Positions 2,600-38,835 of a stretch of 64,000 nt of DNA are shown here, piece after piece; positions within the stretch are counted from its first letter, which is position 1; each line of letters begins with the position of its first letter. Below the pieces are notes generated by a model, which searched no databases, was not told the DNA's origin, and saw nothing but the letters and a program-made list of their open reading frames with translations. This stretch comes from Cordylochernes scorpioides (Eukaryota; Arthropoda; Arachnida; Pseudoscorpiones; Chernetidae). Made by a program: the position numbers and the translations under genes. The stretch lies in NCBI GenBank assembly GCA_030710605.1, contig CP092869.1, positions 16,225,494 through 16,289,493 on the forward strand. Reading direction: 5' to 3'.

Positions 2600-3060
2600 A
2601 ATTTAAATTTCGCAGTAAAGACAGCAGAAGTTTGATTTGCTTGTGAACATTCGCGTGTTAATGTCTATTCATTCGTTATATATTTAGATCTATCTATAAT
2701 AAAGGAATATATTCGGTAACTATGGAGCAATGTGCTGTTCACCATTGAATTATCGAATTTTAAATCGGAGGAATATAAGAATTTGTACTGATAGCAAGAG
2801 AGATAGGATCATTCTAATCATTGTGAACTGAATTTTGCGGTTGTTTGTATTGTAAATACACTATTTATAGAAAATAAAATTTATAGGAAATAAAGAAAGC
2901 ATAAAGAAGTTCCAAAAATGCAATATAACAGCGGTACGGTAGATTAAACTGGCGAAACCGCTGGGAGGGTTCACTACTGATGAGCCAGGCCCTCCCATTA
3001 ATTTTTCCATTGCAGTAAGGGCAGGGGAAATTGTTTTATTTTAAAAAGAATCATATGCGT
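2600..3060 (+). mobile_element. Family M fragment(s)
   Basis: Contains an intact M core on the plus strand: CTGGC 2949-2953, GAAA 2954-2957, TGGGAGGG 2962-2969, CTGATGA 2977-2983, GCCAG 2984-2988, CCCTCCCA 2990-2997. Outer M sequence (GCAGTAAAGACAGCAGAAG) also occurs near 2625. The counterpart is at about 34800-35270. Confidence 0.6.
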
Positions 3061-3090
3061 CTAAAATAGTTTCGTATTTTGATAAAAGAA

Positions 3091-3345
3091 AGCATATCCT
3101 GACCAGGAGCACATGTGCTTTTTAGATGATAGAGCGCCATCTAGTGGAACAGAAATCAACTAAACGTACATATATATATATATAAAAAATGGCATATCCT
3201 GACCAGGAGCACATGTGCTTTACAGAAGGCAGAGCGCCATCTGGTGGAACAGAAATCAACTAAACATTGATTTAGCCTGTTCCCTGATATTTGGCCAACC
3301 CAATTTCTTGATAAATCAAGAAAAGCCATCCACGAATATATATAT
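3091..3345. mobile_element. PLE-A' fragments
   Basis: Two pieces (3091-3165 and 3191-3345) of the family that carries a full hammerhead at 31525-31566; both include AGAGCGCCATCT and the CACATGTGCT block. The ribozyme itself is lost: sequence stops at CATCCACG before an AT repeat. In copy 2 only the first piece remains (35312-35389). Confidence 0.55.
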
Positions 3346-4211
3346 ATATATATATGGTAAGGTAACACCACTCTTGTAATCGGAGACCTTTATCCAGTCT
3401 CAGGTTTGAAGGACTCTCAACAAAACTTTATTGTTTTGCATTACATGATGGCGTGTTGAATTGTGTTTATATTTCGGGGCTGTTACATTTTTATAATTAT
3501 GGTAGTATATATGTAAATATGGTGTATATTGACATATATTACTACATATATATATATTTACACATGTCAAATCAGTTCTATTTAGCATTTAAAAAAAAGT
3601 ATTTGACCTCATATAATTACGTTCGCAGGAAAATACACATTAGGAAAAAAAACTCTTTATCTAAAAAATTATTCAAACATCGATGGCGTATAAAACATAT
3701 TTCACCACTGCAAAAAAAAAACCCAACATATTTAAAAATACTATTTTATCACGTTTAATCACTGCATTAAATGTTTATTATTTGGGTTTATTTTGGAACA
3801 GTAAAACATAAAATTCAGGGGAAAGACAAAATTTGGCTGGATAACACAGGTTGTGGTCTCTTAATACAGGTTGTTCAAGTACTTATAACCTCTTAACTAA
3901 ATGGATTTATCACCAAAAGATTATTTCCGCTTAAAACAGTGTCTGTCTTGATAGGTATTACTGCATATTCATAGATTTCTTGAATCATTTATAATTTATA
4001 CAAACTTCACAATCTGGAGAGACCGTAGTGCTCTGTTAGTAAACAAAAAAATAATCCTATATTTTTGTTTATTTATACTTATTATAAACACACACATTCA
4101 ATAATTTTAAATGTGTGAAAAAAAAACCCCGATATTTTTAATCAATTTTACGAAAATTAAAAAAATCTATATACACCAAGAAAAGAGGTAAAAGCAATGA
4201 ATAGAAAAAAA
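3346..4211. other. No gene recognised
   Basis: AT-rich sequence with short open frames that have no family signature. It is shared with about 35892-36748. A CAACAAAACTTTATTG stretch near 3418 may be an old LINE 3' end on the minus strand. Confidence 0.5.
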
Positions 4212-4366
4212 AAAAGGTTGTGCGCATGCGCCCTGAGGCAGTGTCCTGGATTATACGACAGCAGCCGACGACCTTGAACTACGTAACGTGCGTGTGTCCC
4301 AGATATCAGGGCCGCCGTCGGCTGCTCGCTATTTTGGTGGCAGAGGGTAACGCGCTAGGATGATAA
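4212..4366. promoter_or_regulatory. GC-rich block with NRF1-type palindrome and hairpin
   Basis: A CpG-containing island in AT-rich surroundings. It begins with TGCGCATGCGC (4221-4231), the canonical NRF1 core-promoter motif, and contains an 11 bp inverted repeat AGCAGCCGACG/CGTCGGCTGCT about 50 nt apart. Near-identical at 36749-36900. A promoter of an unseen transcript is possible; the motif alone does not prove it. Confidence 0.35.
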
Positions 4367-4517
4367 ATGTGATGTTATTTTACACTTTTTTTTTTTAAAT
4401 TTTTAATACAGAGTTTTAGAGAATTGTTAGATAAAGGTTGTTAGATAAGTTTAAATATAAATATGAATAAGGATAATAGAGATTAATAAATATAAATATA
4501 TAAAATTGTATAAAATT

Positions 4518-4810
4518 GGAAGGATGTTCTAAACCGTTGGTTTTCGACCGCTACGACCCGGGTTCGATTCCCGCATTGGGCACTTTTTTTTCTGATAAAA
4601 AATGCTCCAATGCCCCCGATTCTTGTAAAAGTCCAACCCCACCAGCGAGTGCAAGTAACCAAATGGGGCTCTGGAACATTTGTAAGTGTACTGCTTTTCA
4701 CATGTGTAGACATGTGGTGCACTTACAGTAAAAGCAGTCGCCTACTTCTACCCACCATGATTATCATGGCCTGTACTTCGTGTACTAGGGATAAGCAAAA
4801 AAAAAAAACT
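4518..4810 (+). mobile_element. tRNA-derived SINE-S
   Basis: A tRNA-like head with a perfect Pol III B box (GGTTCGATTCC near 4561) is followed by the body with CCAACCCCACCAGCGAGTG and an A-rich tail ending about 4810. Copy 2 has the fold-back MITE 37108-37312 near the corresponding position instead. Related copies are at 20690-20990 and 55131-55366. Confidence 0.65.
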
Positions 4811-4919
4811 TCAGCTATATTTGGTAGATCCAGAATTTCCACCAAAAGTTCGTGTTTTTATTAAAACGTAGTTTTTTAATTTACGGCGAATACATAATAA
4901 TACATAATACAATTGCTCA

Positions 4920-5398
4920 TCTATATTAATAAAATGCAAATTTCATAAGTGTTGTTCGCTAAAAACTTTCGTTACAATGCATCAATTTCGACCAAATTTT
5001 CAACATTTATGTAAAACGAGATGGAGCAGGTTTTGCTTAACATCAAAATATTTTTCCTAACTTTAACATGCGTAACTTCGCTGTTATCGATTAAATACTA
5101 AAAAAATCAACAGAGTTAATTTTATTTATATATAAATACAAAAAAAAAAATTCAGCAATTCATTCAACTCAATCTAAAAAAATATTCAAAACAAGCAATT
5201 TTAAGATAGCACCATATGTAAAACAGTCGGCCAAGAAAACAACAACGATATTACATCTTTCTCACATATTCACACACAATCTTGATTAATAATTAAAACT
5301 AATCTTTAACATTGTTTATTATACTTCATAATATATAATATTCGTTAGGCAAACTTTCACTCGGATAAAACGCGGGCGGAGCCGGGTACACCCGCTAG
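4920..5398 (+). mobile_element. Non-autonomous Helitron (family H1), copy 1 only
   Basis: Starts TCTATATTAATAAAATG at 4920, inserted between A and T, and ends with a GC-rich hairpin and CTAG at 5395-5398. It has no ORF with Rep or helicase motifs. The matching place in copy 2 (near 37615) is uninterrupted. The same family sits in opposite orientation at 35412-35891 in copy 2 only. Confidence 0.8.
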
Positions 5399-5712
5399 TA
5401 GATAATACAAAGACATTATACATAACGGTAAATAATATTGGTATTTCATTTTTTTTTTTTTTTTTTGCAAGTGTTTACGAACTTTTGGGAGAACCTTGTA
5501 TTTAGGATTTCTCATTTTCACGATTCCAGAAGGTGGCCGGTTGCTTTTTTTTTTTTTTGTACTCATTAATAAGTTTACAATACCACAAAACATTTTTAAA
5601 GAGAACTAGAAACGATTTACATGGCATATTTTGATATGAAATTGAACCTAGAGCCACGTGCACCTCAAGCTAAAACTTTACGTAGGTATAAAATCCAACA
5701 TAATTACAATTA
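5399..5712. other. No gene recognised
   Basis: AT-rich flank shared with about 37620-37926, including homopolymer T runs. No feature seen. Confidence 0.5.
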
Positions 5713-5909
5713 TGAAAAAGGCATCTCCTTATCGTGCAACTGAAATTTGCTGATGGCTTGCGCCATCTATTGGAATAAATATAAAATATTCTCGTTGATT
5801 TCTAATTATTCCAGAATTGGCCAAATACCCATTCTTGATTAATCAAGAAAAGCTAACCACGGACGTGTTTCGGGCTGTTGGCCCTCATCAGCGTGGTGTA
5901 AGCTGTACT
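5713..5909 (-). mobile_element. PLE-A element end with hammerhead
   Basis: Carries the PLE-A landmarks in minus orientation: AAAAAGGCATCTCCTTATCG, GCGCCATCTATTGGAATAAA, a TTGATTAATCAA palindrome, then the ribozyme at 5856-5897. No ORF. The copy 2 counterpart (37927-38305) is longer and keeps an inverted distal end. Confidence 0.65.
5856..5897 (-). ncRNA. Hammerhead ribozyme, family A
   Basis: On the minus strand: stem I ACCACG/CGTGGT (perfect 6 bp), CTGATGA (5885-5891), stem II GGGC/GCCC closed by CAACA, GAAAC (5867-5871), a two-base loop, then GTC (5862-5864) as cleavage triplet. Every core nucleotide of a type I hammerhead is present. Stem III is one C-G pair plus the A-U pair, the minimal form known from Penelope-like elements, which are thought to act as dimers. 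Confidence 0.85.
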
Positions 5910-6376
5910 TCAATTATAAATACCTCAATAATTGTTAATACTATAATCCCTTCGGTAAAAGTATAAATAAAATACAATTCGCTGAGAGGGAAGTATTTCA
6001 CTTTATAAATAACGGCAATACAAGGTTTACAAGCAGCGCAGTTATACCTGTCTAAGTTACGGGTTCTCACACAATGTGGAAATTACTAGGACCTAAAGTA
6101 ATTGTAACTTAACACACAGAAAAGCGTACACTCAACAGTACAACAACAAAAGGGAGTTAAATAAACACGATTTGCTATATAAAAACAAAACAGTACTTAT
6201 CTTTTATTGTAGCTTTGGTAGGGATCGGACCGGGGTCACACAGGTATGCGAGGAGATCACCAGACACGGATAAATCACGCAGAAAACACTTTAAGTGTCT
6301 CCACACGATAATCCACCACACTGGCCTCTCGCAATGAATTCTTGAAATCCGGGCTAATTGGCCTTTATGAAAAAAA

Positions 6377-6401
6377 TTCCCACGCCGGGGAATCGAACCC
6401 G
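6377..6401 (-). tRNA. 3' half of a tRNA (Glu/Asp-like), remnant
   Basis: On the minus strand CGGGTTCGATTCCCCGGCG plus an acceptor-like TGGGAA is followed at once by a T run. This resembles the T arm, acceptor strand and Pol III terminator of a tRNA whose 5' half is missing. Confidence 0.4.
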
Positions 6402-6420
6402 AAAAAAAAAAAAAAAAAAC

Positions 6421-6492
6421 GCCCGAGCAGGGGCTCGAACCCTGGACCGTTAGGTTAAAAGCCTAACGCTCTACCGACTGAGCTACCCGGGC
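6421..6492 (-). tRNA. tRNA-Lys (UUU)-like gene
   Basis: A 72 nt minus-strand cloverleaf: acceptor GCCCGGG/CTCGGGC (7 bp, one G-T), D arm GCTC/GAGC, anticodon stem TTAGG/CCTAA with loop CTTTTAA (anticodon TTT), T stem CAGGG/CCCTG with loop TTCGAGC. A and B boxes are intact. A T run directly downstream (complement of the A run at 6402-6419) is a good Pol III terminator. It lies inside an insertion missing from copy 2, so it could be a mobile tRNA copy rather than an ancestral gene. Confidence 0.85.
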
Positions 6493-6915
6493 TTAAAATA
6501 AAATAAAACCCGGGCCTCTCGCAATTCCATAGCTCCCTTTTATATACAAACATGGCCACAATTGTCCAATGAGAAGGCGTGAGAGATTGGTTCACTATCA
6601 AACGAAAACAAAGTTCTTCCCGCTAAAAACTGAGATAAGATAAAAGTGCAAATTTTTGTCAATATAATTTGAAAAAAGGGCTGTTACACCCTAAGGCTTA
6701 TATTGCCGTTATATGAGAGAGACCATGGTTTTACGGGATAATAACCGAAGTGTTTTCCCAAGCCGCTATATAGCAAGAAAGTCTTCCCTCAACGAATTGC
6801 TTTATATATTGACAATTCCACAAAAAGTACTATCGCTATGTAATACAAGCCTATTTGTAGAGTACATACAGTCCATGGTAGGTAGTGTAAGTGCACTACA
6901 ATATTGTAACAGAGC

Positions 6916-7241
6916 GTAAAACGACACTTGAAGTTTCACCGCATGAGTTTCTTTTAAACGAAAAATCAAAATTTTATTTCAAGGTGAAATATTGACATTT
7001 CTATCCTTTTTTTGGATGAGGTATGAAAGGGTGAATTATAAAGAATAATGACGAACGGAAAAATAAAAGTGTCCAGAGATGGGAATCGAACCCACAATGT
7101 TCCATCATTACTCTTCATAATTCACCCTTTCATACCTCATCCAAAAAAAGGATAGAAATAGTCGATATTTCACCTTGAAATGAAATTTTGATTTTTCGTT
7201 CAAAAGAAACTCATGCGGTGAAACTTCAAGTGTCGTTTTAC
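6916..7241. mobile_element. SINE-1 inverted pair (palindrome)
   Basis: Two SINE-1 bodies in opposite orientation around a partial tRNA-like centre (CCAGAGATGGGAATCGAACC). The arms pair for about 150 bp. One arm lacks the rest of the tRNA head. The copy 2 palindrome (38847-39251) sits at a different position relative to flanking sequence. Confidence 0.6.
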
Positions 7242-7288
7242 AATCACAGGCCGCAGTGTATTATATTGTTTTGTAACAGAGTATTTAT

Positions 7289-7652
7289 ACATATAAAATG
7301 AAAGTATTCAAAAGCACGAATGTTTCTTTTATACACATTATACAAACTTCTACTGCTCTTACTGCTATGAAAAAATATATTGGGAGGGCTTGGCTCATCA
7401 GTGGTGAACCCTCCCAGCGGTTTCGCCAATTTAATCCACCAGACCGCTTCTCAGAGCTCTAATACTGTATTGGATCATTCTGATTATATATGCCGCACTG
7501 AAGGGTGGAATTTCAGAAATGGTTTTCAGGAAAACTATGGACATAAGCTTATAGGACAGTAGAATTTCATCGCAGTAAGGGCAGAAGAAGTTTGTATTAT
7601 GTATAAAAGAAACATTCGTGCTTTTAAATGTGGTTAATTCGTGGTTTTTGTT
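7289..7652. mobile_element. Family M element, complete, copy 1 only
   Basis: Flanked by an 11 bp direct repeat AGAGTATTTAT (7278-7288 and 7653-7663); copy 2 has one uninterrupted copy near 39443. Ends are imperfect inverted repeats of about 65 bp (AAAAGCACGAATGTTTC outward). The M core is on the minus strand: GCCAA/TTGGC and TGGGAGGG/CCCTCCCA around GAAA and CTGATGA (7381-7429). No ORF. Confidence 0.75.
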
Positions 7653-7663
7653 AGAGTATTTAT

Positions 7664-8229
7664 TAATTTGATTATTTTTTATTAACAGAGTGGTCATTTT
7701 TATGTTTATATTTTTGTCTACTCTGTAAATTTCCCTCGTGGTTTATCTTTTGTTTACCATTCATAGTTTGTCCTTTCCTGAAATAAATTGTTGTCTCATC
7801 CTGAAGTCTTCCCTCCACGTGGCAATGTCTACACTTGTAGAAGCCCACTGTGTACTTACCTGGTGATAGAATTCCCGTTTAAGTTCCTTGTCAGGTTGGA
7901 GTTTTGAATGGGGAAGTTATCGAAGACTTTTAGGATTAAACTAGAACTCCCGTCACTATGGAGATTTAGAGATTAAGTTTGTATTGGAAAGGACAAAGGA
8001 TCCCTGTACAGAGAACCAAGAAGAGTTCTATATGAGCACGACTTCCAAGATCTTGTCTAATTTAGACTAATAAAAGGATAAGTAAAAAAAAAAGAGATAA
8101 AGTCAAACTGAAAATATAATTGAACGCAATTTTCACAGCCAAAGCGTCAGATTCTGATAATACAGAGTGGCGCTTAGTACCGATGGAACTCTCTACAGAA
8201 TCCCAGTTTAAATCTGTGATAGAAAAAAT
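7664..8229. other. No gene recognised
   Basis: Unassigned AT-rich sequence; the first half is shared with about 39460-39708, after which copy 2 is replaced by other repeats until about 40840. Confidence 0.45.
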
Positions 8230-8330
8230 GTAAAAAAAGAGTCGGTGGAAGAGTAGTTAACACCCTCGATTCCCGACAGCCATGAACAGGGATCTAATCC
8301 CGCGTTGGACCCTTTGTTTTAATATGTGAA
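8230..8330 (+). mobile_element. tRNA-Ser-like SINE remnant (SINE-L)
   Basis: GTCGGTGGAAGAGTAGTTAA followed by CCCTCGATTCCCGAC and GGGATCTAATCCCG looks like a degenerate tRNA head with a long variable arm. It is shared with copy 2 at 40965-41045; a minus-strand relative is at 15932-16119. Confidence 0.45.
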
Positions 8331-8767
8331 TAACCTTCCCATAGTATTCATTGTTGCAATTATCCTAAACTAGGTTGCTCTTTTCGAGCGGTACCTAATG
8401 AAGTGATTTTGGAACAAATATGTAAAACGTTTATTTGTAAATGATCGAGATGTACTCAGAAACTTCTGGTTACAAGAGCCGCGACTTTTGACTGAGAGAA
8501 GAAATTCAAGGGCAGCAACAGTGGCTTAGCCCCCGGGGTTACCATAGCAACCTTAATGTAATATTCACCAGAGGGCTGCCCTCTGGGGGCGACACGTGGA
8601 ACTACTCGCCAAGCTGTCGTCTGCTGCTGTTACAATACCAGCTGGGGAACTGAAGGATCCTTAGAAATAAATAATGTTTGTTCCGCACACACAATCTATC
8701 TGAATCAAACAGAATATAGAATTCTCGGTCTGGAAGGCACAGTTTTGACTCCCGAATATGCTAATCA

Positions 8768-8954
8768 GACCAATTTGCATACTTTGGAGGTCAGAATATG
8801 CTAATCACACCGATAACAGACCAATTTTCATACTTTGGAGGTCAGAATATGCTAATCAGACCGATAACAGACCAATTTGCATACTTTGGAGGTCAGAATA
8901 TGCTAATCAGACCGATAACAGACCAATTTGCATACTTTGGAGGTCAGAATATGC
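8768..8954 (+). repeat. 51 bp tandem array with octamer motifs
   Basis: Units start at 8768, 8819, 8870 and 8921. Each unit carries ATTTGCAT (ATTTTCAT in the second) and most carry ATGCTAAT, both forms of the POU/octamer site, plus ACTTTGGAGGTCAGAAT. Copy 2 has three units (41492-41627). An inverted relative lies at about 39893-40145. Confidence 0.85.
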
Positions 8955-8984
8955 ATTTTTGATTTGTTACAAACAACACGATAT

Positions 8985-9300
8985 ATATGTTGCCACTTTT
9001 GTACTATCTTTCACATTGATTGGCGTTCTTACGCCCTTCCGGCCTAAATACCTGCTTCATGGTTTTTTCAAGATGCCCCAAAGACCAGTTTTTTGGTCGT
9101 TGAGGTACAGCTTACACCACGCTGACGAGGGCCAACAGCCCGAAAGGCGTACGTGGTTAGCTTTTCTTGTTTTCTCAAGAAACGGTATTTGGAAAATTCT
9201 GAAATAATTAAAAATCAACAATTAGTTGATATTTATTCTGATAGATGGCGCAAGCCATCAGAAACTTTTAGTTGCACGATCAGGAAATTCCATTTTTTTA
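8985..9300 (+). mobile_element. PLE-A element end with hammerhead
   Basis: Plus orientation: a TTCAAGATGCC region, the ribozyme at 9116-9157, then TATTTATTCTGATAGATGGC and a body ending in an AGGAAATTCC variant of the usual tail. No ORF. The counterpart is at about 41655-41975. Confidence 0.65.
9116..9157 (+). ncRNA. Hammerhead ribozyme, family A (GAAAG variant)
   Basis: Stem I ACCACG/CGTGGT, CTGACGA (9122-9128), stem II GGGC/GCCC, then GAAAG instead of GAAAC, which removes the C-G pair of the tiny stem III. The allelic copy at 41789-41830 keeps GAAAC, so this one is probably weakened. Confidence 0.7.
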
Positions 9301-17344: not shown

Positions 17345-18015
17345 TAAGGCGCCATCTATCTATATAAAATGGAAGTATTTAAGCTCGAATGTTTCTTTTT
17401 TTTACATAGAACAAACTTCTACTGTCCTTATAGATGGCGCGTTATTGCTTTGTGTTAATTTATACCTAACTGGCCTTGTCTTTATTGTTTGTGGAAGAGC
17501 ATTGCTCGATGCAAACATTTAAATGTAATTCTACTGTCCTATAAGCTTATTGATATATATAGTTGTTTATTTGTTTTGCATATATTTCATTTATAAATTA
17601 ATCTCATAATTTAGTCTGTGAAAATAAAAAATATTGGACCGGTGACGAAAACAAAACAAAAAATGGTTGGCTTAATGTTATGTAGTTATGATATATAATT
17701 GTTTGTGATGTTATATAATTAAATGTGATGTTTATGTAATTTTGATCTTCATTGAATAAAATATATAAAGTTTAAATGTGTTTTAAACTTTAATAACAAG
17801 CACAAAACACTTATGTCCATAGTTTTCTTGAATACCATTTCTGGGATTCCACCCTTCAGTGTAGCATATATAAGTAGAATCGTCCATTATAGTATTATAG
17901 CTCTAAAGAAGCGGTTTGGGAGGGTTCACCACTGATGAGCCAAGCCCTCCAAATATTTTTTGATCGCAGTAGAAGTTTGTTGTGTGTATAAAATAAAGTG
18001 CTTAAATCCCTTCAT
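17345..18015 (-). mobile_element. Family M, rearranged
   Basis: Outer M sequence at 17345-17450 and an M core at about 17900-17950 that has lost the GGCGAAACC part. A 9 bp helix with one bulge (TTTGGGAGGG/CCCTCCAAA) is kept. A non-M AT-rich stretch separates the parts. The counterpart is at 51750-52400. Confidence 0.5.
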
Positions 18016-18097
18016 TATATATATAGTTAATGATATTAATTATCGTCTGCTATATTTTATAGAGATTGAAACTGATTTATTACAATGTTCATATATA

Positions 18098-19089: not shown

Positions 19090-20065
19090 CGTTGTCGTGT
19101 CCAATGAAGAGCCTCAGATGTCTCCATACATCTCTATCACAGCAGTTGCAATGTTCTTGGATTTGTAAAGCTGCTGTTCTGGGTCCATGTTAATTTTCTG
19201 TTGTTGTCGTGTCCAATGAAGAGCCTCAGATGTTTCCATACATCTCTATCACAGCAATGTCCTCTATCTTGGGTGTGTAAAGCTGCTGTTCTGGGTCCAT
19301 GTCAATTTTCTGTTGTTGTTGTGTCCAATGAAGAGCCTCAGATGTATCCATACATCTCTATCACAGCAATATCCTCTATCTTGGGTGTGTAAAGCTGCTG
19401 TTCTGGCTCCATGTCAATTTTCTGTTGTTGTTGTGTCCAATGAAGAGCCTCAGATATATCCATACATCTCTATCACAGCAATGTCCTCTATCTTGGGTGT
19501 GTAAAGCTGCTGTTCTGGGTCCATGTCAATTTTCTGTTGTTGTCGTGTCCAATGAAGAGCCTCAGATGTCTCCATACATCTCTATCACAGCAATGTCCTC
19601 TATCTTGGGTGTGTAAAGCTGCTGTTCTGGGTCCATGTCAATTTTCTGTTGTTGTCGTGTCCAATGAAGAGCCTCAGATGTCTCCATACATCTCTATCAC
19701 AGCAATGTTCTCTATCTTGGGTGTGTAAAGCTGCTGTTCTGGGTCCATGTCAATTTTATGTTGTTGTTGTCGTGTCCAATGAAGAGCCACAGATGTCTCC
19801 ATACATCTCTATCACAGCAATGTCCCTCTATCTTGGGTGTGTAAAGCTGCTGTTCTGGGTCCATTCAATTTTGTGTTGTTGTTGTCGTGTCCAATGAAGA
19901 GCCTCAGATGTTTCCATACATCTCTATCACAGCAATATCCTCTATCTTGGGTGTGTAAAGCTGCTGTTCTGGGTCCATGTCAATTTTCTGTTGTTGTCGT
20001 GTCCAATGAAGAGCCTCAGATGTTTCCATGCATCTCTATCACAACAGTCGCAATGTCCTCTATCT
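19090..20065 (+). repeat. 112 bp minisatellite, nine units
   Basis: Units containing TGTCCAATGAAGAGCCTCAG start at about 19097, 19209, 19321, 19433, 19545, 19657, 19771, 19887 and 20000. 112 is not a multiple of three, so the overlapping open frames it generates are artefacts. Copy 2 has eight units (53672-54525). Confidence 0.95.
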
Positions 20066-22230: not shown

Positions 22231-22514
22231 ATAAAACGACATTTGAAAATTATCCGGCATGTGTTTCTTTTCAACGAAAAACACAATTTATTTTAAGGAG
22301 AAATAACGATTTTTTCTAACCTTAGGGATGAAGTATGAAAGGATGAATTGTGAAGAGTAATGATAAACGGAAAAATAAAAGTGTCCAGGGATGGGAATCG
22401 AACCCACAGTGTTACGCTTACCGGGTAGATGCCATGTCCACTAAGCTACCCTGGACATATTTTTCCGTTCGTTGAAGAGAAACACATGCGGGATAATTTC
22501 GAATGTCGTTTTAC
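22231..22514 (-). mobile_element. SINE-1 with full tRNA-like head plus inverted arm
   Basis: The minus-strand tRNA-like head at 22383-22456 has a perfect 7 bp acceptor GTCCAGG/CCTGGAC, A box TAGCTTAGTGG and B box GGTTCGATTCC; its anticodon arm does not pair well. The body runs to 22231. A short inverted arm lies beyond the head. The counterpart is at 56461-56747. Confidence 0.7.
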
Positions 22515-25909: not shown

Positions 25910-26323
25910 ATGTGGATATGTAATGCACTAAAGCATGGAATATGGTTAGACACCATGGGATACCATCCCTTAGTATCAGAAAAATGCTATGGGCATCAAT
26001 CTTACGGCCAGCATGACCAACCAACCAACCCTATGGCTCCAAGAAGGGCGCCACGGATCAAGGCCAAGCCTCGAGCACGTTTCAAGGCCACGCAATCTGG
26101 AACAGGTGTCGGCGCCATCTTGAAACAATATACGCAAAAAATGGCGGCGCGAGCTAAATATAGGTCGTGTCCTACATCAGACTCGTCTGCCTGTGTTTTG
26201 TCGACCGTTTGCATATTCATACTTCCCACACGGATCGTTTGGCTTCAAACAGATGCATTGTGGGATATGGGGTCGTCGTCTGTTAGTATCAGAGCTTGTT
26301 TCCTGTTGGGGTTACATCCTTGA
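25910..26323. promoter_or_regulatory. CpG-rich block with two YY1-type sites and open frames
   Basis: GC-rich patch at about 26030-26170. AAGATGGCGCC (minus, starting near 26121) and AAAATGGCGGCG (plus, about 26138) are opposed YY1-type sites. A 137-codon plus-strand frame spans the block in both copies but with three silent and three replacement differences, so coding is not supported. On the minus strand an ATG at 26118 opens 37 codons to a possible donor at 26005. The counterpart is at 59543-59956. Confidence 0.3.
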
Positions 26324-27290
26324 ATTTTGACCATTTTCTGGAAATATATAAATTAGTAGAGATTGTCATTTGTACCATGCCAGTTGAGTTTAAGCTGAGG
26401 CATTGTGGAACACGGGGTCATTGCTTGTTTGAAAGCTCGTTTACCTTTGAGGATACACATCTTTGAATTTTGACTATTTTCTGTGAAATTATGGATTAGT
26501 AAAGATTGTCGTTTGTACCGTGCCAGTTGAATTTAAGCTGAGGCATTGTGGAACATGGGGTCATTGCTTGTTTGCAAGCTCGTTTACCTTTGAGGATACA
26601 CATCCTTGAAATTTGACTATTTTCTGTGAAATTATGGATTAGTAAAGATTGTCATATGTTCCGAACCAGTTGAGTTTAAGAAGAGGTATTGTGGAATAAA
26701 GGGTCATTGCTTGCTTGCAAGCTCGTTTACCTTTGAGGATACACATCCTTGAATTTTGACTATTTTCTGTGAAATTATGGATTAGTAAAGATTGTCATAT
26801 GTTCCGAACCAGTTGAGTTTAAGAAGAGGTATTGTGGGGTCATTGCTTGTTTGTTTAAAGCTCGTTTCCCATTGAGGATACTCATCCTTGAATTTTGACC
26901 ATTTTCTGGAAATTTATAGATTAGTAAAGGTAGTCATATGTTCCGAACCAGTTGAGTTTAAGAAGAGGTATTGTGGGGTCATTGCTTGTTTGTTTGCAAG
27001 CTCGTTTACCTTTGAGGATACACACCCTTGAATTTTGACTATTTTCTGTGAAATTATGGATTAGTAAATATTCTCATATCTCCAGCACCAGTTGAGCTTA
27101 GGCAGAGGTATTGTGAAATAAAGGGTCATTGCTTGTTTGTTTGCAAGCTCGTTTCCCTTTGAAGATACACATCCTTGAATTTTTAAATATTTTCTGTGAA
27201 ATTATACACGACTTTACACAATTATACACTTGTAGATTAGTAGAGATAGTCATTTATCCCGTGCAAGTTGAGTTTAAGCTGAGGTATGGG
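26322..27290 (+). repeat. ~143 bp minisatellite, about seven units
   Basis: Units share TTTGAGGATACACATCCTTG, GACTATTTTCTGTGAAATTA and GGGTCATTGCTTG, spaced 143-145 bp. Copy 2 has about five units (59950-60645). Confidence 0.92.
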
Positions 27291-28373: not shown

Positions 28374-28530
28374 ATCTAAAGAAGCGGTCTGGTGGATTAA
28401 ATTGATGAAACCGCTAGGAGGGTTCACCACTGATGAGCCAAACCCTCCCAATATTTTTTCATCGCAGTAAGGACAGTAGAAGTTTGATTTATCTGTGAAA
28501 AGAAACATTCGCGATTTAATGTCTTCATTC
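28374..28530 (+). mobile_element. Family M fragment next to the gap
   Basis: Plus strand: GATGAAACC, AGGAGGG, CACTGATGAGCCA, CCCTCCCA and the outer GCAGTAAGGACAGTAGAAG. The first helix has decayed (TTGAT against GCCAA). The 5' part is lost in the gap. Confidence 0.6.
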
Positions 28531-28599
28531 GTTATATAGATATTTAAAAGTACAAACGGCAACTAATCGTGTCCACAGAGAGTAACGTAAAAATGGATT

Positions 28600-32450: not shown

Positions 32451-32789
32451 ACCAATGAAAACACCAAAACGCGAATGTTTCTTTCTCACAAATAAACCAA
32501 ACTTCTACTGTCCTTACTGCGATGAAAGAAATCGATATGGAGGGCTTGGCTCATCAGTGGTGAACCCTTCAGCGGTTTCGCTAATTTAATCTACCAGACC
32601 GCTTCTTTAGAGCTCTAATACTGTATTGGATCATTCTGCTTATATATGTTACACTGAAGGGTGGAATCTTAGAAATGGTATTTAAGTAAACTATGGACAT
32701 ACGCTTTTAGGACAGTAGAATTACATTCAAATATTTGTACCGAGCAATGCTCTTCCGTAAATAATAAGGATTTTGGTGTTTTCATTTGT
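32451..32789. mobile_element. Family M element
   Basis: Counterpart of 523-861 with the same ends. Confidence 0.65.
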
Positions 32790-32852
32790 AAAATAGTATA
32801 TTGGATAATTGGGGTTTGTATTCTTAACGGAGCTTTGAACGACTGGCTATAT

Positions 32853-33075
32853 GTAAAACGACATTTGAAAATTATCCCGCATGTGTTTCTTTTCCACGAA
32901 AAATCAAAATTTATTCCAAGGAGAAATAACGATCATTTCTAACCTTAGGGATGAAGTATGAAAGGAGGAATTGTGAAGAGTAATCATAAATGGAAAAATA
33001 AAGTGTCCAGGGATGGGAATCGAACCCACAGTGCTCCGTTTACCGGGCAGATGCCATGTCCACTAGGCTAACCTG
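32853..33075 (-). mobile_element. SINE-1, full length, copy 2 only
   Basis: Flanked by a perfect 12 bp duplication GACTGGCTATAT (32841-32852 and 33076-33087); copy 1 has one copy at 917-928. On the minus strand the tRNA-like head (to 33005) with A box TAGCCTAGTGG and B box GGTTCGATTCC leads into the body, which ends GTCGTTTTAC. This defines the 5' and 3' limits of the family. Confidence 0.88.
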
Positions 33076-33843
33076 GACTGGCTATATGATCATATACTTA
33101 AGAGATGATATCACAGAAAAAAATGGAAAAAAATATATTGCTCATATCCTTTCTTAAGAATAGATTTTTTTTCCTCTTCCTTGAATAAAAAATATCTGAA
33201 TGATGTTTATATTGTATCGTAGAAATCAAGTCTTTGTATATCTGGAGATGTGAAAATATTTATTGATGACGTCACGGCGACCTGTCGACAATTATTAACA
33301 AATTAACCAAACTACAGCTAGAGAATCTTGAACAACCAAGCAAAATAAATATTTTAAAGATGATTTTCCAAATACAGAGTAATATATATCTCTAGATGGA
33401 CGCTTCTCAGTTTGCCAAAGCTGGTGTTGTGGCTTTGTCACCGACCCGAGGCCGCTAGTTGCGGCGACGGTCAATAGATGGCGTCAGGTTTTTGACGTTT
33501 ATTTTGACGGGAGAGGCGGCCTAGGCTTCTATAGAGTAATATATATTTTTTATAATCTGTTGAATATTTTCATTGAATAATATTAAATTATTTATTCGCC
33601 ACAATATAGTACTGGGAAATCCCTGTAAAGCACAGTAATATGCACAATTATTACAATGGTGTTTAGCTGTAGAGAACAACTTTTTGATTACCATTGCTAT
33701 ATTGGGTTAATATAAAAGAAGAAAAAAAAAGGAAATTCTTGCGTAGAACAACGTTTATTCCTCTAGCTTTGGATCGACAACGTTCTTCAACGACGGCATC
33801 GTTCCAAAGCTAGCGGAATGTTCTACCCAAGAAGTTCCTTTTT

Positions 33844-34011
33844 GTAAAACGACATTTGAAATACTATCCCGCATGTGTTTCTTTTCAACGAAAAATCAAA
33901 ATTTATTTCAAGGAGAAATAACGATTATTTTTAACCTTTTGGATGAGGTATGAAAGGGTGAATTGTGAAGAGTAATGATAAACGGAAAAATAAAATTGTC
34001 CAGGGATGGGA
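33844..34011 (-). mobile_element. SINE-1 remnant
   Basis: Counterpart of 1661-1829, with the same truncation point in the B-box region. Confidence 0.65.
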
Positions 34012-34031
34012 AGCTCCTTTTTATTATTTTA

Positions 34032-34454
34032 CTAGCCGAATGACCCGGGCAACGCCCGTGTTTTACCCGATTGAATGTTTTGAATCAAATACTATTTGTT
34101 ACAATTATAAATTGGCGCCTTAATTAATTGCATATGTTAGTTAATAACTATAGCCTATGTGCTTTATCTGTCTATGTACTGTTGGCTTCCGTAGGCGTCT
34201 CTTACTGGGAAAAAGAAAGAGAGGATTCCATTTGGTTATTATCTAATATATGCATTTATTTAGGGAGCGACCCGCTCCAACACAATAGTTACATAAATAG
34301 CGTGTGGGGGGGCATGATGGGGGGGGTGGCAAAGGTGGCGTGACCGTAGCCAACCAATAGGAGGGCGCCATTCAAAAAAAAAAAGCAAACGGTGACAGAG
34401 AGAGAGAAATGACTGATTAGGAGATGAGGAAAGACGCTCGTAACTGTATATAGA
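34032..34454 (-). mobile_element. Non-autonomous Helitron (family H2)
   Basis: Counterpart of 1849-2253; the terminal CTAG is at 34032-34035. Confidence 0.75.
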
Positions 34455-34799
34455 ATTTATATTATCGCAATACAGTTTTTAGATGTATTATTAATATTTT
34501 TTTTTGATGACCATTGACCAAGTTGAATTTAGTTTCTATAAGGTAATTCTAATGATGTTCATCATATTGTGGGGCGAAGAAATAATTTAATTATTTAATT
34601 TAATTATTCAACGAAAATATTTTAAAACAGATTTAAAATTTGACATTTGTTAAATCATCATTTAATTACCTAGCTTGCTTACTCGATATTCTCTAGCTGT
34701 AGATAGTTTGGTTGGTTTGTTAATATCTGTCGACTGGTCGCCGTGACGTCATCAATAAATACATCTCCAGATATACAAAGACTTGATTTCTACCCTACA

Positions 34800-35270
34800 A
34801 TACAATTTCTTTTTCGCAGTAAAGACAGCAGAAGTTTGATTTGCTTGTGAACATTCGCGTGTTAATGTCTATTCATTCGTTCTATATTTAGATCTATCTA
34901 TAATAAAGGAATATATTCGGTAACTATGGAGCAATGTGCACCATTGAATTATCGAATTTTAAATCGGAGGAATATAAGAATTTGTACTGATAACAAGGGA
35001 TATAGGACTATAGGATCATTCTAATCATTGTGAACTGAATTTTGCGGTTGTTTGTATTGTAAATACACTATATATATATATATATTTATAGAAAATAAAA
35101 TTTATAGTAAATAAAGAAAGCATAAAGAAGTTCCAAAAATGCAATATAACAGCGGTACGGTAGATTAAACTGGCGAAACCGCTGGGAGGGTTCACTACTG
35201 ATGAGCCAGGCCCTCCCATTAATTTTTCCATTGCAGTAAGGGCAGGAGAAATTGTTTTATTTTAAAAAGA
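34800..35270 (+). mobile_element. Family M fragment(s)
   Basis: Counterpart of 2600-3060, with an identical M core (CTGGC/GCCAG and TGGGAGGG/CCCTCCCA). A PLE-A' fragment follows at 35312-35389. Confidence 0.6.
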
Positions 35271-35411
35271 ATCATATGCGTCTAAAATAGTTTCGTATTT
35301 TGATAAAAGAAAGCATATCCTGACCAGGAGCACATGTGCTTTTTAGATGATAGAGCGCCATCTAGTGGAACAGAAATCAACTAAACGTACATATATATAT
35401 ATATATATATA

Positions 35412-35891
35412 CTAGCGGATGTGTACCCGGCTTCGCCCGGGTTTTATCCGAGTGAAAGTTTGCCTAACGAATATTATATATTATGAAGTATAATAAACAA
35501 TGTTAAAGATTAGTTTTAATTATTAATCAAGATTGTGTGTGAATATGTGAGAAAGATGTAATATCGTTGTTGTTTTCTTGGCCGACTGTTTTACATATGG
35601 TGTTATCTTAAAATTGCTTGTTTTGAATATTTTTTTAGATTGAGTTGAATGAATTGCTGAATTTTTTTTTGTATTTATATATAAATAAAATTAACTCTTT
35701 TGATTTTTTTTTGTATTTAATCGATAACAGCGAAGTTACGCATGTTAAAGTTAGGAAAAATATTTTGATGTTAAGCAAAACCTGCTCCATCTCGTTTTAC
35801 ATAAATGTTGAAAATTTGGTCGGAATTGATGCATTGTAACGAAAGTTTTTAGTGAACAACACTTATGAAATTTGCATTTTATTAATATAGA
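35412..35891 (-). mobile_element. Non-autonomous Helitron (family H1), copy 2 only
   Basis: Minus-strand start TCTATATTAATAAAATGC at 35891; end hairpin and CTAG at 35412-35415. It lies between an AT repeat and TGTGGTAAGG. Copy 1 has the PLE-A' piece (3191-3345) in this interval instead. Confidence 0.8.
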
Positions 35892-36748
35892 TGTGGTAAG
35901 GTAACACGACTCTTGTAATCGGAGACCTTTATCCAGTCTCAGGTTTGAAGGACTCTCAACAAAACTTTATTGTTTTGCATTACATGATGGTCAAGCTGGC
36001 GTGTTGAATTGTGTTTATATTTCGGGGCTGTTACATTTTTATAATTATGGTAGTATATATGTAAATATGGTGTATATTGACATATAATTACTACATATAT
36101 ATATTTACACATGTCAAATCAGTTCTATTTAGCATTTTAAAAAAAGTATTTGACCTCATATAATTACGTTCGCGGGAAAATACACATTAGGAAAAAACTC
36201 TAAAAAATGATTCAAACATCGATGGCATATAAAACATATTTCACCACTGCAAAAAAAAAAAAAACCAACATATTTTTAAAAAATACTATTTTATCACGTT
36301 TAATCACTGCATTAAATGTTTATTATTTGGGTTTATTTTGGAACAGTAAAACATAAAATTCAAGGGAAAGACAAAATTTGGCTGGATAACACAGGTTGTG
36401 GTCTCTTAACACAGGTTGTTCAAGTACTTATAACCTCTTAACTAAATGGATTTATCACCAAAAGATTATTTCCGCTTAAAACAGTGTCTGTCTTGATAGG
36501 TATTACTGCATATTCATAGATTTCTTCAATCATTTATAATTTATACAAACTTCACAATTTGGAGACCGTAGTGCTCTGTTAGTAAACAAAAAAAATAATC
36601 CTATATTTTTGTTTATTTATACTTTTTATAAACACACACATGTCAATAATTTTAAATGTGTGAAAAACAACGATATTTTTAATCAATTTTACGAATAAAA
36701 AAAATCTATATACCAAGAAAAGAGGTAAAAGCAATGAATAGAAGAAAA
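35892..36748. other. No gene recognised
   Basis: Counterpart of 3346-4211. Confidence 0.5.
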
Positions 36749-36900
36749 AAAAGGTTGTGCGCATGCGCCCTGAGGCAGTGTCCTGGATTATACGACAGCA
36801 GCCGACGACCTTGAACTACGTAACGTGCGTGTGTCCCAGATATCAGGGCCGCCGTCGGCTGCTCGCTATTTTGGTGGCAGAGGGTAACGCGCTAGGATGA
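36749..36900. promoter_or_regulatory. GC-rich block with NRF1-type palindrome and hairpin
   Basis: Counterpart of 4212-4366. TGCGCATGCGC at 36758-36768; the inverted repeat is unchanged. Confidence 0.35.
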
Positions 36901-37107
36901 TAAATGTGATGTTATTTTACACTTTTTATTTTTTTTTATTTTTAATACAGAGTTTTTCTTTTAGAGAATTTTTAGATAAAGGTTGTTAGATAAGGTTAAA
37001 TATAAATTTGAATAAATAAGGATAATAGAGATTAATAAGTATAAATATATAAAATTGATAAATATACATATAAATATAGATGGGAATGTTGCCGGGAGGA
37101 TAATGAT

Positions 37108-37312
37108 CTAAAGAGACAAGGGTCGCCTCTCCCGTCAAAACCCAGACGCCATCTATTCTCTTTAAGTCTCTAGGTGGACGCTTTTCAGTTTGCTAAAGCT
37201 GGTGTTGTGGCTTTGTCACCGACCCGAGGCCGCTAGTTTACGGCGACGGTCAATAGATGGCGTCTGGTTTTGACGTCTATTTTGACGGGAGAGGCGACCT
37301 TTGTCTCTTTAG
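37108..37312. mobile_element. Fold-back MITE (family P), arms unequal, copy 2 only
   Basis: Ends CTAAAGAGACAAGGGTCGCC and GGCGACCTTTGTCTCTTTAG. One arm is partly replaced (TCTCTTTAAGTCTCTAGGTG), so it is no longer a full palindrome. Confidence 0.65.
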
Positions 37313-37926
37313 AATAAGTTTCTTGTATTATGTGTTATTTGAAAGAACAACTTTGAGCCAAGGTTCTTTAATAGACCAACTTCCCAGACTACCTGTACGT
37401 CTTTTGTAATTCTTAATTAACATTTATTGAATTGAAGAAATCAGAGGAAACCCGCGCTTAGATCTTATTTCTCTATTGCATATATAAATACATCTGGTAC
37501 ACACACAATATATAAGATTGTCACAAAAGTTCGTGTTTTTATTAAAACCTTTTTTTTTTATTACATGGCGAATAATATTATTACGGTGAATACATAATAA
37601 TACATAATACAATTACTTTATACATAATATAAATACATTATACATAACGGCGAATAATATTGGTATTTATATATATATATATTTTTGCAAGTGTTTACAA
37701 ACTTTTGAGACAACCTTGTAGATAAGATTTTGCATTTTCACGATCCCAGAAGGTAACTGTTTGTCTTTTTCAGTACTCTTTAATAAGTTTACACGAAATA
37801 TTGTTAAAGAGAGCTAGAAACGATTTACATTTAAAATGGCATATTTTGATATGAAATTGAACCTAGAGCCACGTGCACCTTAAGCTAAAACTTTACGTAG
37901 GTATAAAATCCAACATAATTACAATT

Positions 37927-38305
37927 ATGAAAAAGGCATCTCCTTATCGTGCAACTGAAAGTTGCTGATGGCTTGCGCCATCTATCGGAATAAATATCAA
38001 CTATTCTCGTTGATTTTTAATTATTCCAGAATTGGCCAAATACCCATTCTTGATTAATCAAGAAAAGCTAACCACGGACGCGTTTCGGGCTGTTGGCCCT
38101 CATCAGCATGGTGCAAGCTGTACCTCAAAGACCAAAAAACTGGTCATTCAGGCATCCTGAAAAATCATGAAACGGGTAGTTAAGGCCAGAATGGCGTGAG
38201 ACCGCGACACAATGATAAAAAAAATAGTACAAATGTGATATTGTACTGGGATAAGGTGCATAAATTATGAAAAATGCATCTCCTTATGGTGCAACTACGT
38301 AGTTA
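37927..38305 (-). mobile_element. PLE-A element with both inverted ends
   Basis: Minus orientation: AAAAAGGCATCTCCTTATCG end, body, ribozyme at 38071-38112, then a distal part with GGCATCCTGAAAAATC and an inverted copy of the tail to about 38305. No ORF. Confidence 0.7.
38071..38112 (-). ncRNA. Hammerhead ribozyme, family A
   Basis: Counterpart of 5856-5897. Stem I ACCATG/CGTGGT has a U-G pair instead of A-U. CTGATGA (38100-38106), GGGC/GCCC stem II, GAAAC (38082-38086), GTC (38077-38079) are intact. Confidence 0.85.
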
Positions 38306-38559
38306 ATATTGTTAACATTATAATTCCTTCGGTAAAATTATAAATAAAATAAAATTTGATGAGGAGGAAGTGTTTCTCTTTATACATAACGGCAAGATAA
38401 GGTTTACAAGCTGTTAGTACCGTAGTTATACGTGTCGAGGGGCTGTTTACATCCTCAAGTTTATATTGCAGCTATATAAGAGAAAGTTAATGTGGTTTTA
38501 CGGGCTACTAAACAAAGTGTATGATTTATAATATGATGCACTAGCGCGCCATCTGTTAT
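38306..38559. other. No gene recognised
   Basis: Counterpart of about 5910-6053 joined directly to the sequence after 6688: the empty site of the LTR-like insertion. Confidence 0.45.
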
Positions 38560-38835
38560 CAAAATTCGAAACTATTTTAAAGGCGTAAGATTCTTTTTGA
38601 TATTAAACAATTTCTACTGTCCTTACTGCAATGGAAAAATTAATGAGAGGGCCTGGCTCATCAGTGGTGAACCCTCTCAGCGGTTTCGCCAGTTTATAAA
38701 ACAGCGGTAGATTAAACTAGCGAAACCGCTGAGAGGGTTCACCACTGATGAGCCAGGCCCTCTCATTAATTTTTCCATTGCAGTAAGGACAGTAGAAATT
38801 GTTTAATATCAAAAAGAATCTTACGCCTTTAAAAA
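38560..38835. mobile_element. Family M inverted pair (palindrome)
   Basis: Two M cores face away from each other. Minus-strand core: CTGGC/GCCAG and TGAGAGGG/CCCTCTCA (38644-38692). Plus-strand core: CTAGC/GCCAG (one mismatch) and TGAGAGGG/CCCTCTCA (38717-38765). GAAA and CTGATGA are intact in both. The GAGAGGG version against GGGAGGG elsewhere is a compensated change. Confidence 0.75.

What the first reader, a model, noticed from the sequence alone, without database searches (positions are those of the whole stretch)
2949..38765. Dispersed family M: permuted hammerhead-like boxes inside a covarying pseudoknot
At least eight copies share, in order, helix strand a, GAAACCGC, helix strand b, TTCACCACTGATGA, a', one base, b'. 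Strand a/a' is TTGGC/GCCAA at 7390-7429 but CTGGC/GCCAG at 2949-2988 and 38653-38692. Strand b/b' is TGGGAGGG/CCCTCCCA in some copies and TGAGAGGG/CCCTCTCA at 38644-38679 and 38730-38765. So each helix shows a compensated change. The order a-b-a'-b' gives an H-type pseudoknot. GAAAC and CTGATGAG are the hammerhead core boxes in circularly permuted order (open stem II), yet stem I is missing. This could be a decayed permuted hammerhead, an unrecognised self-cleaving or packaging RNA, or a DNA-level structure. One complete copy (7289-7652) has an 11 bp target duplication and no ORF.
Basis: partly seen in the sequence, partly recalled or inferred. Interest (0 to 1): 0.8.

Follow-up and report, generated by a model that had tools for sequence, protein, structure and literature searches.

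The report
Jumping element with a reshuffled hammerhead ribozyme
A very abundant 372-letter mobile element in this animal-like genome carries what looks like a complete self-cutting RNA (hammerhead) whose three parts are joined in an order so far reported from environmental RNA, and it seems to spread as small RNA circles copied back into the chromosomes.

Summary
Just upstream on the same strand lies AGCGGU-C|UGGUGGA, which supplies stem III (with ACCGCU), the cleavage site (GUC or GUA) and stem I (with UUCACCA). All hammerhead core nucleotides are present, ordered site, GAAA, CUGAUGA: the non-circular "type-SGC" permutation validated in vitro by Eckert et al. 2023 (PMC10085705). That paper found no SGC RNA in the genome of a known organism. 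Here it sits in a 2.62 Gb eukaryote genome: 77,290 exact copies of a core 17-mer, 32,751 of the site+GAAA blocks, 15,932 perfect 67-mers of two lineages. The unit is 371/372 bp, non-coding, with a TATA-like box. Target duplications of 11-19 bp were found in 32 of 116 elements; 17 of 25 mapped inserts are head-to-head double arms whose outer ends share one zone of the unit; tandem arrays repeat every 371-373 bp. This reads as a retrozyme: circular RNA reverse-transcribed from both target strands, perhaps by Penelope-like machinery. Cleavage, circles and helper are inferred, not shown. One window copy (7289-7652, minus strand) is intact.

The parts
7289..7652 (-). complete two-arm insertion of the element (364 bp): minus-strand arm 7289-7570 (unit coordinates 151 back round to 244) followed by a short plus arm, aligned 7565-7629 (unit 70-134)
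   Evidence: TSD and mapping to the circular unit
7278..7288 (.). target site duplication, left copy AGAGTATTTAT
7653..7663 (.). target site duplication, right copy AGAGTATTTAT
7382..7448 (-). type-SGC hammerhead ribozyme, intact copy
   Evidence: descriptor hit; sequence
7443..7448 (-). block S: stem III 3' strand AGCGGU
   Evidence: pairs with 7416-7421
7442..7442 (-). predicted cleavage site: cut 3' of C (H17), between 7442 and 7441
   Evidence: structural analogy with hammerhead, not tested
7435..7441 (-). block S: stem I 5' strand UGGUGGA
   Evidence: pairs with 7402-7408
7416..7424 (-). block G: GAA + stem III 5' strand ACCGCU
   Evidence: pairs with 7382-7388
7402..7408 (-). block C: stem I 3' strand UUCACCA
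7395..7401 (-). block C: CUGAUGA core
7483..7490 (-). TATA-like box TATATAAT, 48 nt upstream of the predicted cut
   Evidence: sequence; TATAAAAG present in both lineage units
2904..3084 (+). single-arm insertion, lineage S2; stem I weakened by changes on both strands; 12-bp TSD AAAGAAAGCATA at 2892-2903 and 3085-3096
35125..35305 (+). segmental duplicate of the 2904-3084 insertion
38527..38833 (.). two-arm palindromic insertion, both arms with G and C blocks and the TGAGAGGG/CCCTCTCA helix; block S truncated or lost; 13-bp TSD AAAGTGTATGATT
525..798 (-). copy of the element, ribozyme partly decayed (stem II mismatch)
32466..32726 (-). segmental duplicate of the 525-798 copy
28380..28537 (+). 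copy with block S kept, stem II decayed; sequence upstream reads N
17810..18025 (+). copy lacking most of blocks S and G
52196..52413 (+). segmental duplicate of 17810-18025
48724..48818 (+). truncated, diverged copy with G and C blocks

Best explanation
The family is a non-autonomous, retrozyme-like retroelement of 371-372 nt whose self-cleaving ribozyme is a type-SGC (non-circularly permuted) hammerhead. Proposed working: an internal TATA promoter drives transcripts through tandem copies; the ribozyme folds from stems I, II, III plus the helix joining stems I and II and cuts after AGCGGU(C/A); the resulting 371/372-nt monomers are ligated into circles; a reverse transcriptase, most likely of a Penelope-like element that shares the unit's 3' region, starts inside the RNA (unit position about 125-190) from the nicked ends of both target strands and may run round the circle more than once. 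This leaves head-to-head double arms, tandem arrays and target duplications of 11-19 bp. Shown from sequence: all core nucleotides, the four helices, their order, the copy numbers, the unit length, the insert anatomy. Inferred: cleavage, transcription, circles, the helper.
For: Core and order: AGCGGU-H-UGGU(G/A)GA...(U/C)UGGC-GAAACCGCU-GGGAGGG-UUCACCA-CUGAUGA-GCCA(A/G)-G-CCCUCCC read directly. Strict descriptor (core nucleotides, three stems of at least 4 bp): 35 of 134 pulled copies; window 1 versus 0 in 20 shuffles; 72 hits in 331,384 fetched bases versus 0 in the same sequence reversed; with stems of at least 3 bp 79 versus 0, 78 of the 79 in the family (overlapping loci counted more than once). 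On 44 chosen copies 89.9% of cells pair, 85-92% per helix, against 30-51% when slid; covariation score 0.135 against 0.109 shuffled (0 of 500 as high) and at most 0.089 slid; stem II pair 20-59 is C-G in 22 and U-A in 22, none mismatched. In the wider set of 99 copies that pair is C-G 51, U-A 45, other 3, and the I-II pair 35-66 is A-U in 6. Between the two lineage units the ribozyme is 62/68 identical against 193/304 for the rest. Abundance: 77,290 exact 17-mers, 32,751 S+G 33-mers, 10,069 S1 and 5,863 S2 perfect 67-mers, each with 0 in the backward-read control. Inserts: shared flank stretch of 11-19 bp in 32 of 116 elements versus 2 of 288 mismatched pairings with at least 11; 17 of 25 mapped inserts are minus-then-plus double arms, their 34 outermost aligned ends all at unit 125-180; 83 of 102 3'-type ends at 121-200; opposite-strand neighbours within 1 kb among the listed perfect copies: 22 minus-then-plus, 0 plus-then-minus (12 and 10, counted by hand in the capped lists, all on contig C1). 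L100: 12 minus and 4 plus units spaced exactly 372 inside one candidate 15-bp duplication. PLE-type ORF remnants are followed by the unit's 3' region. The published type-SGC fold has the same four helices, each shown necessary by disruption and rescue in SGC-3 (PMC10085705).
Against: No cleavage, transcript or circle was observed. The 44 copies were chosen for keeping block S; in the 99, stem III pairs hold in 62-79, stem I in 27-91 (pair 12-43 only 27), stem II in 80-96, the I-II helix in 88-95, and many copies have lost block S. Two of the five covariation measures are weak: pairs with a change on both sides 7 (23 of 500 shuffles as high; 8 when slid by -1) and further pair types 22 (118 of 500). 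Stem I in S2 is only UGGU/ACCA followed by an A.C mismatch; stems I and III show hardly any compensated change. Stem III abuts the I-II helix with no linker, a connection that Eckert et al. also find not obviously compatible with the crystal structure. An apparent excess of 5' breakpoints at the cleavage site (19 of 74 in the permitted zone, 7.4 expected) did not hold up when the junctions were read: most look like decayed copies or joints at the stem III or stem I inverted repeats, so there is no clean genomic footprint of cleavage. 84 of 116 elements showed no duplication of 11 bp or more. The circular unit does not fold better than shuffles (z -0.39 and -0.86). Tandem arrays can also grow by unequal crossing-over; L100 shows signs of it (units -0 = -3, -1 = -4). 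PLE evidence is weak: GIY-YIG hits are below Pfam's cut-off (E 0.0019 and 0.01), no RT domain was called in those pieces, five of the six loci share one junction and may go back to one insertion, and a genome-wide PLE search did not complete.
Confidence: 0.83

Rival explanations
1. Former ribozyme: the element descends from a type-SGC hammerhead retrozyme, but the RNA no longer needs to cut itself; unprocessed transcripts are mobilised in trans and the conserved core now serves as a binding or initiation signal for the reverse transcriptase.
For: [quoted passage not shown] The 3' part of the core (C block and I-II helix) is also found after PLE remnants without blocks S and G. Stem I is weak in S2. 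Hairpin-only copies without S and G occur more than once (L064 and L065). No clean cleavage footprint.
Against: Blocks S and G, of no use to a mere 3' signal, are perfectly kept in 32,751 copies; the lineage with the most perfect copies, S1, has a better stem I (G12-C43) than S2; the S3 lineage that lost block G has only 3 exact copies of its 38-mer, all on C1 (copies with a base changed, such as L012, L019 and L026, are not in that count).
Confidence: 0.22
2. DNA transposon (MITE or foldback element) with terminal inverted repeats; the RNA-like pairings are inverted-repeat by-products.
For: Inverted termini and palindromic copies; duplications with a modal length of 12.
Against: Outer ends vary over unit 125-180; duplication length varies, 11-19 bp; 8 of 25 mapped inserts have a single arm and no inverted repeat; tandem units of 371-373 bp; the 22 opposite neighbours seen are all head-to-head; stems I, II and III lie within one arm.
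Confidence: 0.04
3. The canonical hammerhead topology is formed across two monomers of a dimeric transcript (blocks G1-S2-C2 or S1-C1-G2), not by the pseudoknotted monomer.
For: Tandem dimers exist; dimeric hammerheads are reported for vertebrate retrozymes (abstract of PMC7229834).
Against: It would need pairing across about 370 nt, while all strands lie within 67 nt in the order already shown to cleave as a monomer (PMC10085705); it gives no role to the I-II helix b/b', which is kept.
Confidence: 0.04

Closest known systems
Type-SGC hammerhead ribozymes, HRIMA-1 motif and variants (Eckert, Friedrich, Weinberg and Weinberg 2023, PMC10085705)
   Same: Block order site-GAAA-CUGAnGA; all core nucleotides; stems I, II, III and a helix joining stems I and II; two pseudoknots in the core; in a few of theirs, as here, no nucleotide between stem III and the I-II helix.
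   Different: Theirs (583 sequences) come from environmental data; [quoted passage not shown] Here it is chromosomal DNA of a eukaryote at tens of thousands of copies in a mobile unit. The linker between stems I and II is 5 nt (typically 3 there).
Metazoan retrozymes with type I hammerheads (Cervera and de la Pena 2020, PMC7229834)
   Same: Non-autonomous repeats of about 170-400 nt with a hammerhead, tandem copies, up to 120,000 copies in axolotl (section heading), circRNA intermediates and PLE helper proposed there.
   Different: Ribozyme is type SGC, not type I; head-to-head double arms are common here; circRNA not shown here.
Penelope-like retroelements (e.g. PAc, PMC11167929)
   Same: PAc cuts and extends both target strands, starts reverse transcription inside the RNA, prefers AT-rich DNA and carries a hammerhead; PLE-type ORF remnants here are followed by the unit's 3' region.
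   Different: The unit codes for no protein; PLE hammerheads are described as atypical type I variants (PMC7229834, section 14).
Rfam hammerhead families (RF00163 and relatives)
   Same: Same core nucleotides and three stems.
   Different: No hammerhead family matched the window at gathering, the intact element up to E 5 or L100; that these models assume the circular orders is recalled.

Membership tests
Type-SGC hammerhead ribozyme | Order block S, block G, block C on one strand | tested here: met
   perfect 67-mers
Type-SGC hammerhead ribozyme | Invariant core: CUGAnGA, GAA, A15.1-U16.1, H17 at the site, G-C closing stem II | tested here: met
   descriptor, 35 of 134 copies with all three stems at least 4 bp; per-position table
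Type-SGC hammerhead ribozyme | Stems I, II and III | tested here: met
   85-92% of cells paired in 44 chosen copies versus 30-51% slid; stem I is 7 bp in S1 but interrupted by an A.C mismatch in S2; lower figures in the unchosen 99
Type-SGC hammerhead ribozyme | Helix joining the outer sides of stems I and II | tested here: met
   GGGAGGG/CCCUCCC, 90.9% of cells paired
Type-SGC hammerhead ribozyme | Covariation in the stems | tested here: inconclusive
   one fully compensated pair in stem II, one in the I-II helix in 6 of 99; almost none in stems I and III; two of five measures not clearly above shuffles
Type-SGC hammerhead ribozyme | Self-cleavage at the predicted site, abolished by the CUGAnGA G mutation | not testable with these tools
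   needs transcription in vitro
Retrozyme (metazoan, non-LTR) | Non-coding unit of 170-400 nt bearing a hammerhead, tandem copies with unit-length spacing | tested here: met
   units 371 and 372 nt; tandems spaced 371-373; L100
Retrozyme (metazoan, non-LTR) | Target site duplications | tested here: met
   at least 11 bp in 32 of 116 versus 2 of 288 mismatched pairings
Retrozyme (metazoan, non-LTR) | Type I hammerhead | tested here: not met
   the order is S-G-C, not C-G-S; so it works like a retrozyme but is not a member as so defined
Retrozyme (metazoan, non-LTR) | Expressed as linear and circular RNA | not testable with these tools
   no transcriptome available
Penelope-like element (autonomous) | RT plus GIY-YIG ORF within the unit | tested here: not met
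   the 371/372-nt unit is non-coding; PLE-type ORF fragments lie only beside some copies
DNA transposon / MITE | Fixed terminal inverted repeats and fixed TSD length | tested here: not met
   ends vary over unit 125-180, TSD 11-19 bp, 8 of 25 inserts single-armed
   S-G-C is not a rotation of C-G-S

The most novel reading that the evidence does not exclude
Type-SGC hammerheads are not confined to RNA of unknown hosts: an animal-like genome is filled with a retrozyme built on one. Its inserts record reverse transcription of a 371/372-nt RNA circle, in places more than one round, started at the same internal zone from both ends of a staggered cut, so that one event can leave a two-armed rolling-circle array. 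If so, the SGC RNAs seen in metatranscriptomes may partly stem from such genomic retroelements.
Probability: 0.6. Interest if true: 0.86.

Novelty: new variant of a known kind. Interest (0 to 1): 0.8.

Why it matters
Non-circular permutation of a functional RNA fold was reported in 2023 from sequences without known hosts. A genomic, mobile, vastly amplified example would give the fold a host, a biological role (circle-making for retrotransposition) and a natural series of thousands of variants. It makes two open questions directly testable: whether pseudoknotted hammerheads work in an animal, and whether retrozyme RNA circles are the true templates of retrotransposition, since arm lengths and joints can be read from the genome.

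Tried and rejected
Rejected: circularly permuted type II hammerhead (block order wrong); DNA transposon termini (see rivals); a Jockey-type LINE as the home of the ribozyme (an S2 unit is fused upstream of its ORF1 in L021, L028 and L030, but only these three of the 40 listed matches reach into the unit); a viral carrier (viral contigs gave 2 contigs with the same stretch, which has no S or G block); a special fold of the whole circle (z -0.39, -0.86). Tried and inconclusive: breakpoint peak at the cleavage site (dropped after reading the junctions); Rfam RF00163 in the own genome (0 matches, but only 74 of 285,298 candidates were scored and no control genome rang); S3 progenitor (4 exact 20-mers). 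Never answered: genome-wide searches for GIY-YIG and for the PLE protein.

Full report
WHAT WAS CHECKED. The window is part of an unnamed 2.62 Gb, 24-contig genome (G000:C7:16225494-16289493). A mariner-like ORF (recognised from memory) and a LINE with RVT_1, Exo_endo_phos_2 and PRE_C2HC domains ('Jockey-type' is recalled) point to an animal, arthropod-like by my own judgement; no species is named. The eight window copies with the full box order reduce to about five independent insertions, because the window contains a ~32-34 kb segmental duplication and 38671/38738 are arms of one insert.

THE MISSING HALF. Read on the minus strand at 7448-7382: AGCGGU-C|UGGUGGA-UUAAA-UUGGC-GAA-ACCGCU-GGGAGGG-UUCACCA-CUGAUGA-GCCAA-G-CCCUCCC. 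AGCGGU pairs with ACCGCU (stem III, with the A15.1-U16.1 pair), UGGUGGA with UUCACCA (stem I, one G.U), UUGGC with GCCAA (stem II), GGGAGGG with CCCUCCC. The site triplet is GUC in one lineage (S1) and GUA in the other (S2). So the hammerhead core is complete, but the order is site, GAAA, CUGAUGA. That cannot be reached by rotating the known types; it is the non-circular permutation called type SGC by Eckert et al. (PMC10085705; I saw the outline, parts 2-6 of 8 of the text, and passages; not parts 1, 7, 8 nor the supplement). In SGC-3 they disrupted and rescued all four helices in vitro. They also note that in a few sequences stem III and this helix are joined without a nucleotide, as here, and that this is not obviously compatible with the known crystal structure.

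IS IT MORE THAN CHANCE. A strict descriptor gives 1 hit in the window against 0 in 20 dinucleotide shuffles, and 35 of 134 pulled copies have all three stems of at least 4 bp, 39 of at least 3. Over 331,384 fetched bases there are 79 hits with stems of at least 3, 0 when the sequence is reversed, 78 of 79 in the family (overlapping loci inflate the count). In 44 copies chosen for keeping block S (of 82 distinct) 85-92% of cells pair per helix, 30-51% when slid; the covariation score is 0.135 against 0.109 shuffled and at most 0.089 slid, cells with double changes 29 against 11 shuffled; but pairs with a change on both sides (7; 23 of 500 shuffles as high, 8 at slide -1) and further pair types (118 of 500) are not clearly above the controls. 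In the wider 99 copies (all windows within 22 mismatches of two templates, identical ones dropped) pairing is lower, stem III 62-79 of 99 per pair, stem I 27-91, stem II 80-96, I-II helix 88-95, because many copies have lost block S. Only pair 20-59 in stem II is fully compensated between lineages (C-G 51, U-A 45, other 3); pair 35-66 of the I-II helix is A-U in 6 of 99. By eye the S3 copies (L009, L012, L019, L020, L023, L026) show a third type, A-U, at the stem II pair. Between the S1 and S2 units the ribozyme is 62/68 identical, the rest 193/304, so it was kept while the rest diverged; one other stretch is also well kept (87% over 68 nt). The pseudoknot-free minimum energy fold of the S1 and S2 68-mers already contains stem III and the I-II helix side by side.

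ABUNDANCE. Exact matches genome-wide: 77,290 for a 17-mer of block C, 32,751 for a 33-mer of blocks S+G with three two-fold positions, 10,069 and 5,863 for perfect 67-mers of S1 and S2; each with 0 in the control read backwards. A derivative without block G (S3) has 3 exact copies of its 38-mer, all on contig C1; copies with a base changed are not counted there.

THE MOBILE UNIT. In tandem copies the distance from predicted cut to predicted cut is 372 (S1, L045) or 371 nt (S2, L034). The unit is non-coding and has TATAAAAG about 49 (S1) or 39 nt (S2) upstream of the cut (sequences; position). Of 154 merged elements, 116 were long enough and away from locus ends; 32 of these have a shared flank stretch of 11-19 bp, modal 12, against 2 of 288 mismatched pairings with at least 11; 84 have none. 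By my count the 32 hold 26 distinct sequences. I mapped 25 of the 32 (dropped: L018, L073, L091 and window 35124 as duplicates; L038, L048:8529 and L065 not mapped; L011 and L030 are duplicates of each other). 17 are minus-then-plus double arms whose 34 outermost aligned ends all lie at unit 125-180 (in L064 and the 7289 insert the right alignment stops about 20 nt short of the insert's end); 8 are single arms. In a wider count, with matches under 85% identity or 50 nt and repeated junctions dropped, 83 of 102 3'-type ends fall at 121-200. Among the perfect copies listed (the first places only, all on C1), opposite-strand neighbours within 1 kb are minus-then-plus 12 times (S1) and 10 times (S2), never the reverse (hand count). 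L034 holds about 1.9 and L045 about 1.4 contiguous rounds of the unit. L100 (C1:7155700-7162600) holds 12 minus and 4 plus units spaced exactly 372, head to head, inside a single candidate 15-bp duplication; shared variants between units -0/-3 and -1/-4 suggest that part of the array grew later by unequal exchange.

MECHANISM. These features fit a retrozyme: transcription from the internal promoter, self-cleavage to unit-length RNA, circularisation, reverse transcription. Metazoan retrozymes (PMC7229834: outline with abstract, sections 14 and 17) are 170-400 nt, tandem, carry type I hammerheads, reach 120,000 copies in axolotl, and are suspected to use PLE machinery. A PLE enzyme studied in vitro (PMC11167929: passages and part 1 of section 3) cuts and extends both target strands, prefers AT-rich sites and starts inside the RNA; double arms with a common outer zone look like the product of such a reaction. 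The same paper says that hammerhead cleavage is not needed for insertion in vitro, which favours the 'former ribozyme' rival. PLE-type ORF remnants lie beside several copies: L019 and L071 have sub-threshold GIY-YIG matches (E 0.0019 and 0.01; the RT motif I recognised from memory, no RT domain was called). In L010, L014, L017, L024, L029 and in L019 the end of the PLE-type match is followed 187-257 nt downstream by block C, and the unit's 3' part is present from about position 22-26 on (78-81% identical over 144-149 nt in the five, 74% over 93 nt in L019). The five share one junction and may go back to one insertion. This suggests, no more, that unit and PLE share the 3' region that the enzyme uses.

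WHAT DOES NOT FIT OR IS NOT SHOWN. Cleavage, transcripts and circles were not observed. Breakpoints seemed to peak at the cleavage site (19 of 74, 7.4 expected), but of the junctions printed most read as decayed copies or joints at the inverted stem strands, so I do not count this. Stem I is weak in S2 (UGGU/ACCA plus an A.C mismatch). The circle's fold is unremarkable. The PLE search over the genome did not complete.

NOVELTY. Eckert et al. [quoted passage not shown] In the open library the term type-SGC with hammerhead gives only that paper; two other papers hold its title phrase (listing only); a search for retrozyme, hammerhead and insect (8 listed) and one for later work (15 of 138 listed; PMC11300833 seen in passages only, a pistol-like pseudoknotted hammerhead in which the word permut- does not occur) showed no type SGC in a genome. 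Subscription papers and supplements were not searched. Rfam 15 has no hammerhead model that matches. I therefore file it as a new variant of a known kind: a type-SGC hammerhead in the first genomic and mobile setting that I know of.

Noticed in passing
window 151-28243 versus 32072-61602: Segmental tandem duplication of about 32-34 kb, about 88-98% identical in the larger blocks; makes several repeat copies in the window non-independent.
   Followed up: partly
window 19091-20043, 53673-54517, 26314-27205, 59947-60558: Tandem repeats with units of 112 and 143 bp, present in both halves of the duplication.
   Followed up: no
window 62585-63508 (-): ORF of 307 aa that looks like a mariner-type transposase (recognised from memory, not searched).
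   Followed up: no
L045 unit, about coordinates 208-275 (TTTGCTGAAGAGCATTGCTCGAAGCAAAT ... TTCTACTGTCCTATAAGCTTATGTC): Second well-conserved stretch of the unit (87% over 68 nt between lineages) with a possible hairpin holding an asymmetric GAA/GA internal loop; possible binding signal.
   Followed up: no
L021, L028, L030: S2 ribozyme unit fused directly upstream of a Jockey-type LINE (RVT_1, PRE_C2HC, Exo_endo_phos_2), with one 5' sequence shared by two different flanks: a LINE that may have captured a ribozyme-bearing promoter.
   Followed up: partly
L042, L054, L063, L064, L065: Hairpin-like derivatives: two arms joined near the b/b' helix with the CUGAUGA segment as loop, as if cDNA had snapped back there.
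   Followed up: no
window 6420-6492, 22383-22455, 33005-33077, 56615-56687 (-): Four tRNA genes or tRNA-like copies (Lys, Tyr, Thr, Thr); the Tyr and Thr copies score 36.8-46.3 bits against 71.2 for Lys and may be SINE-like.
   Followed up: no
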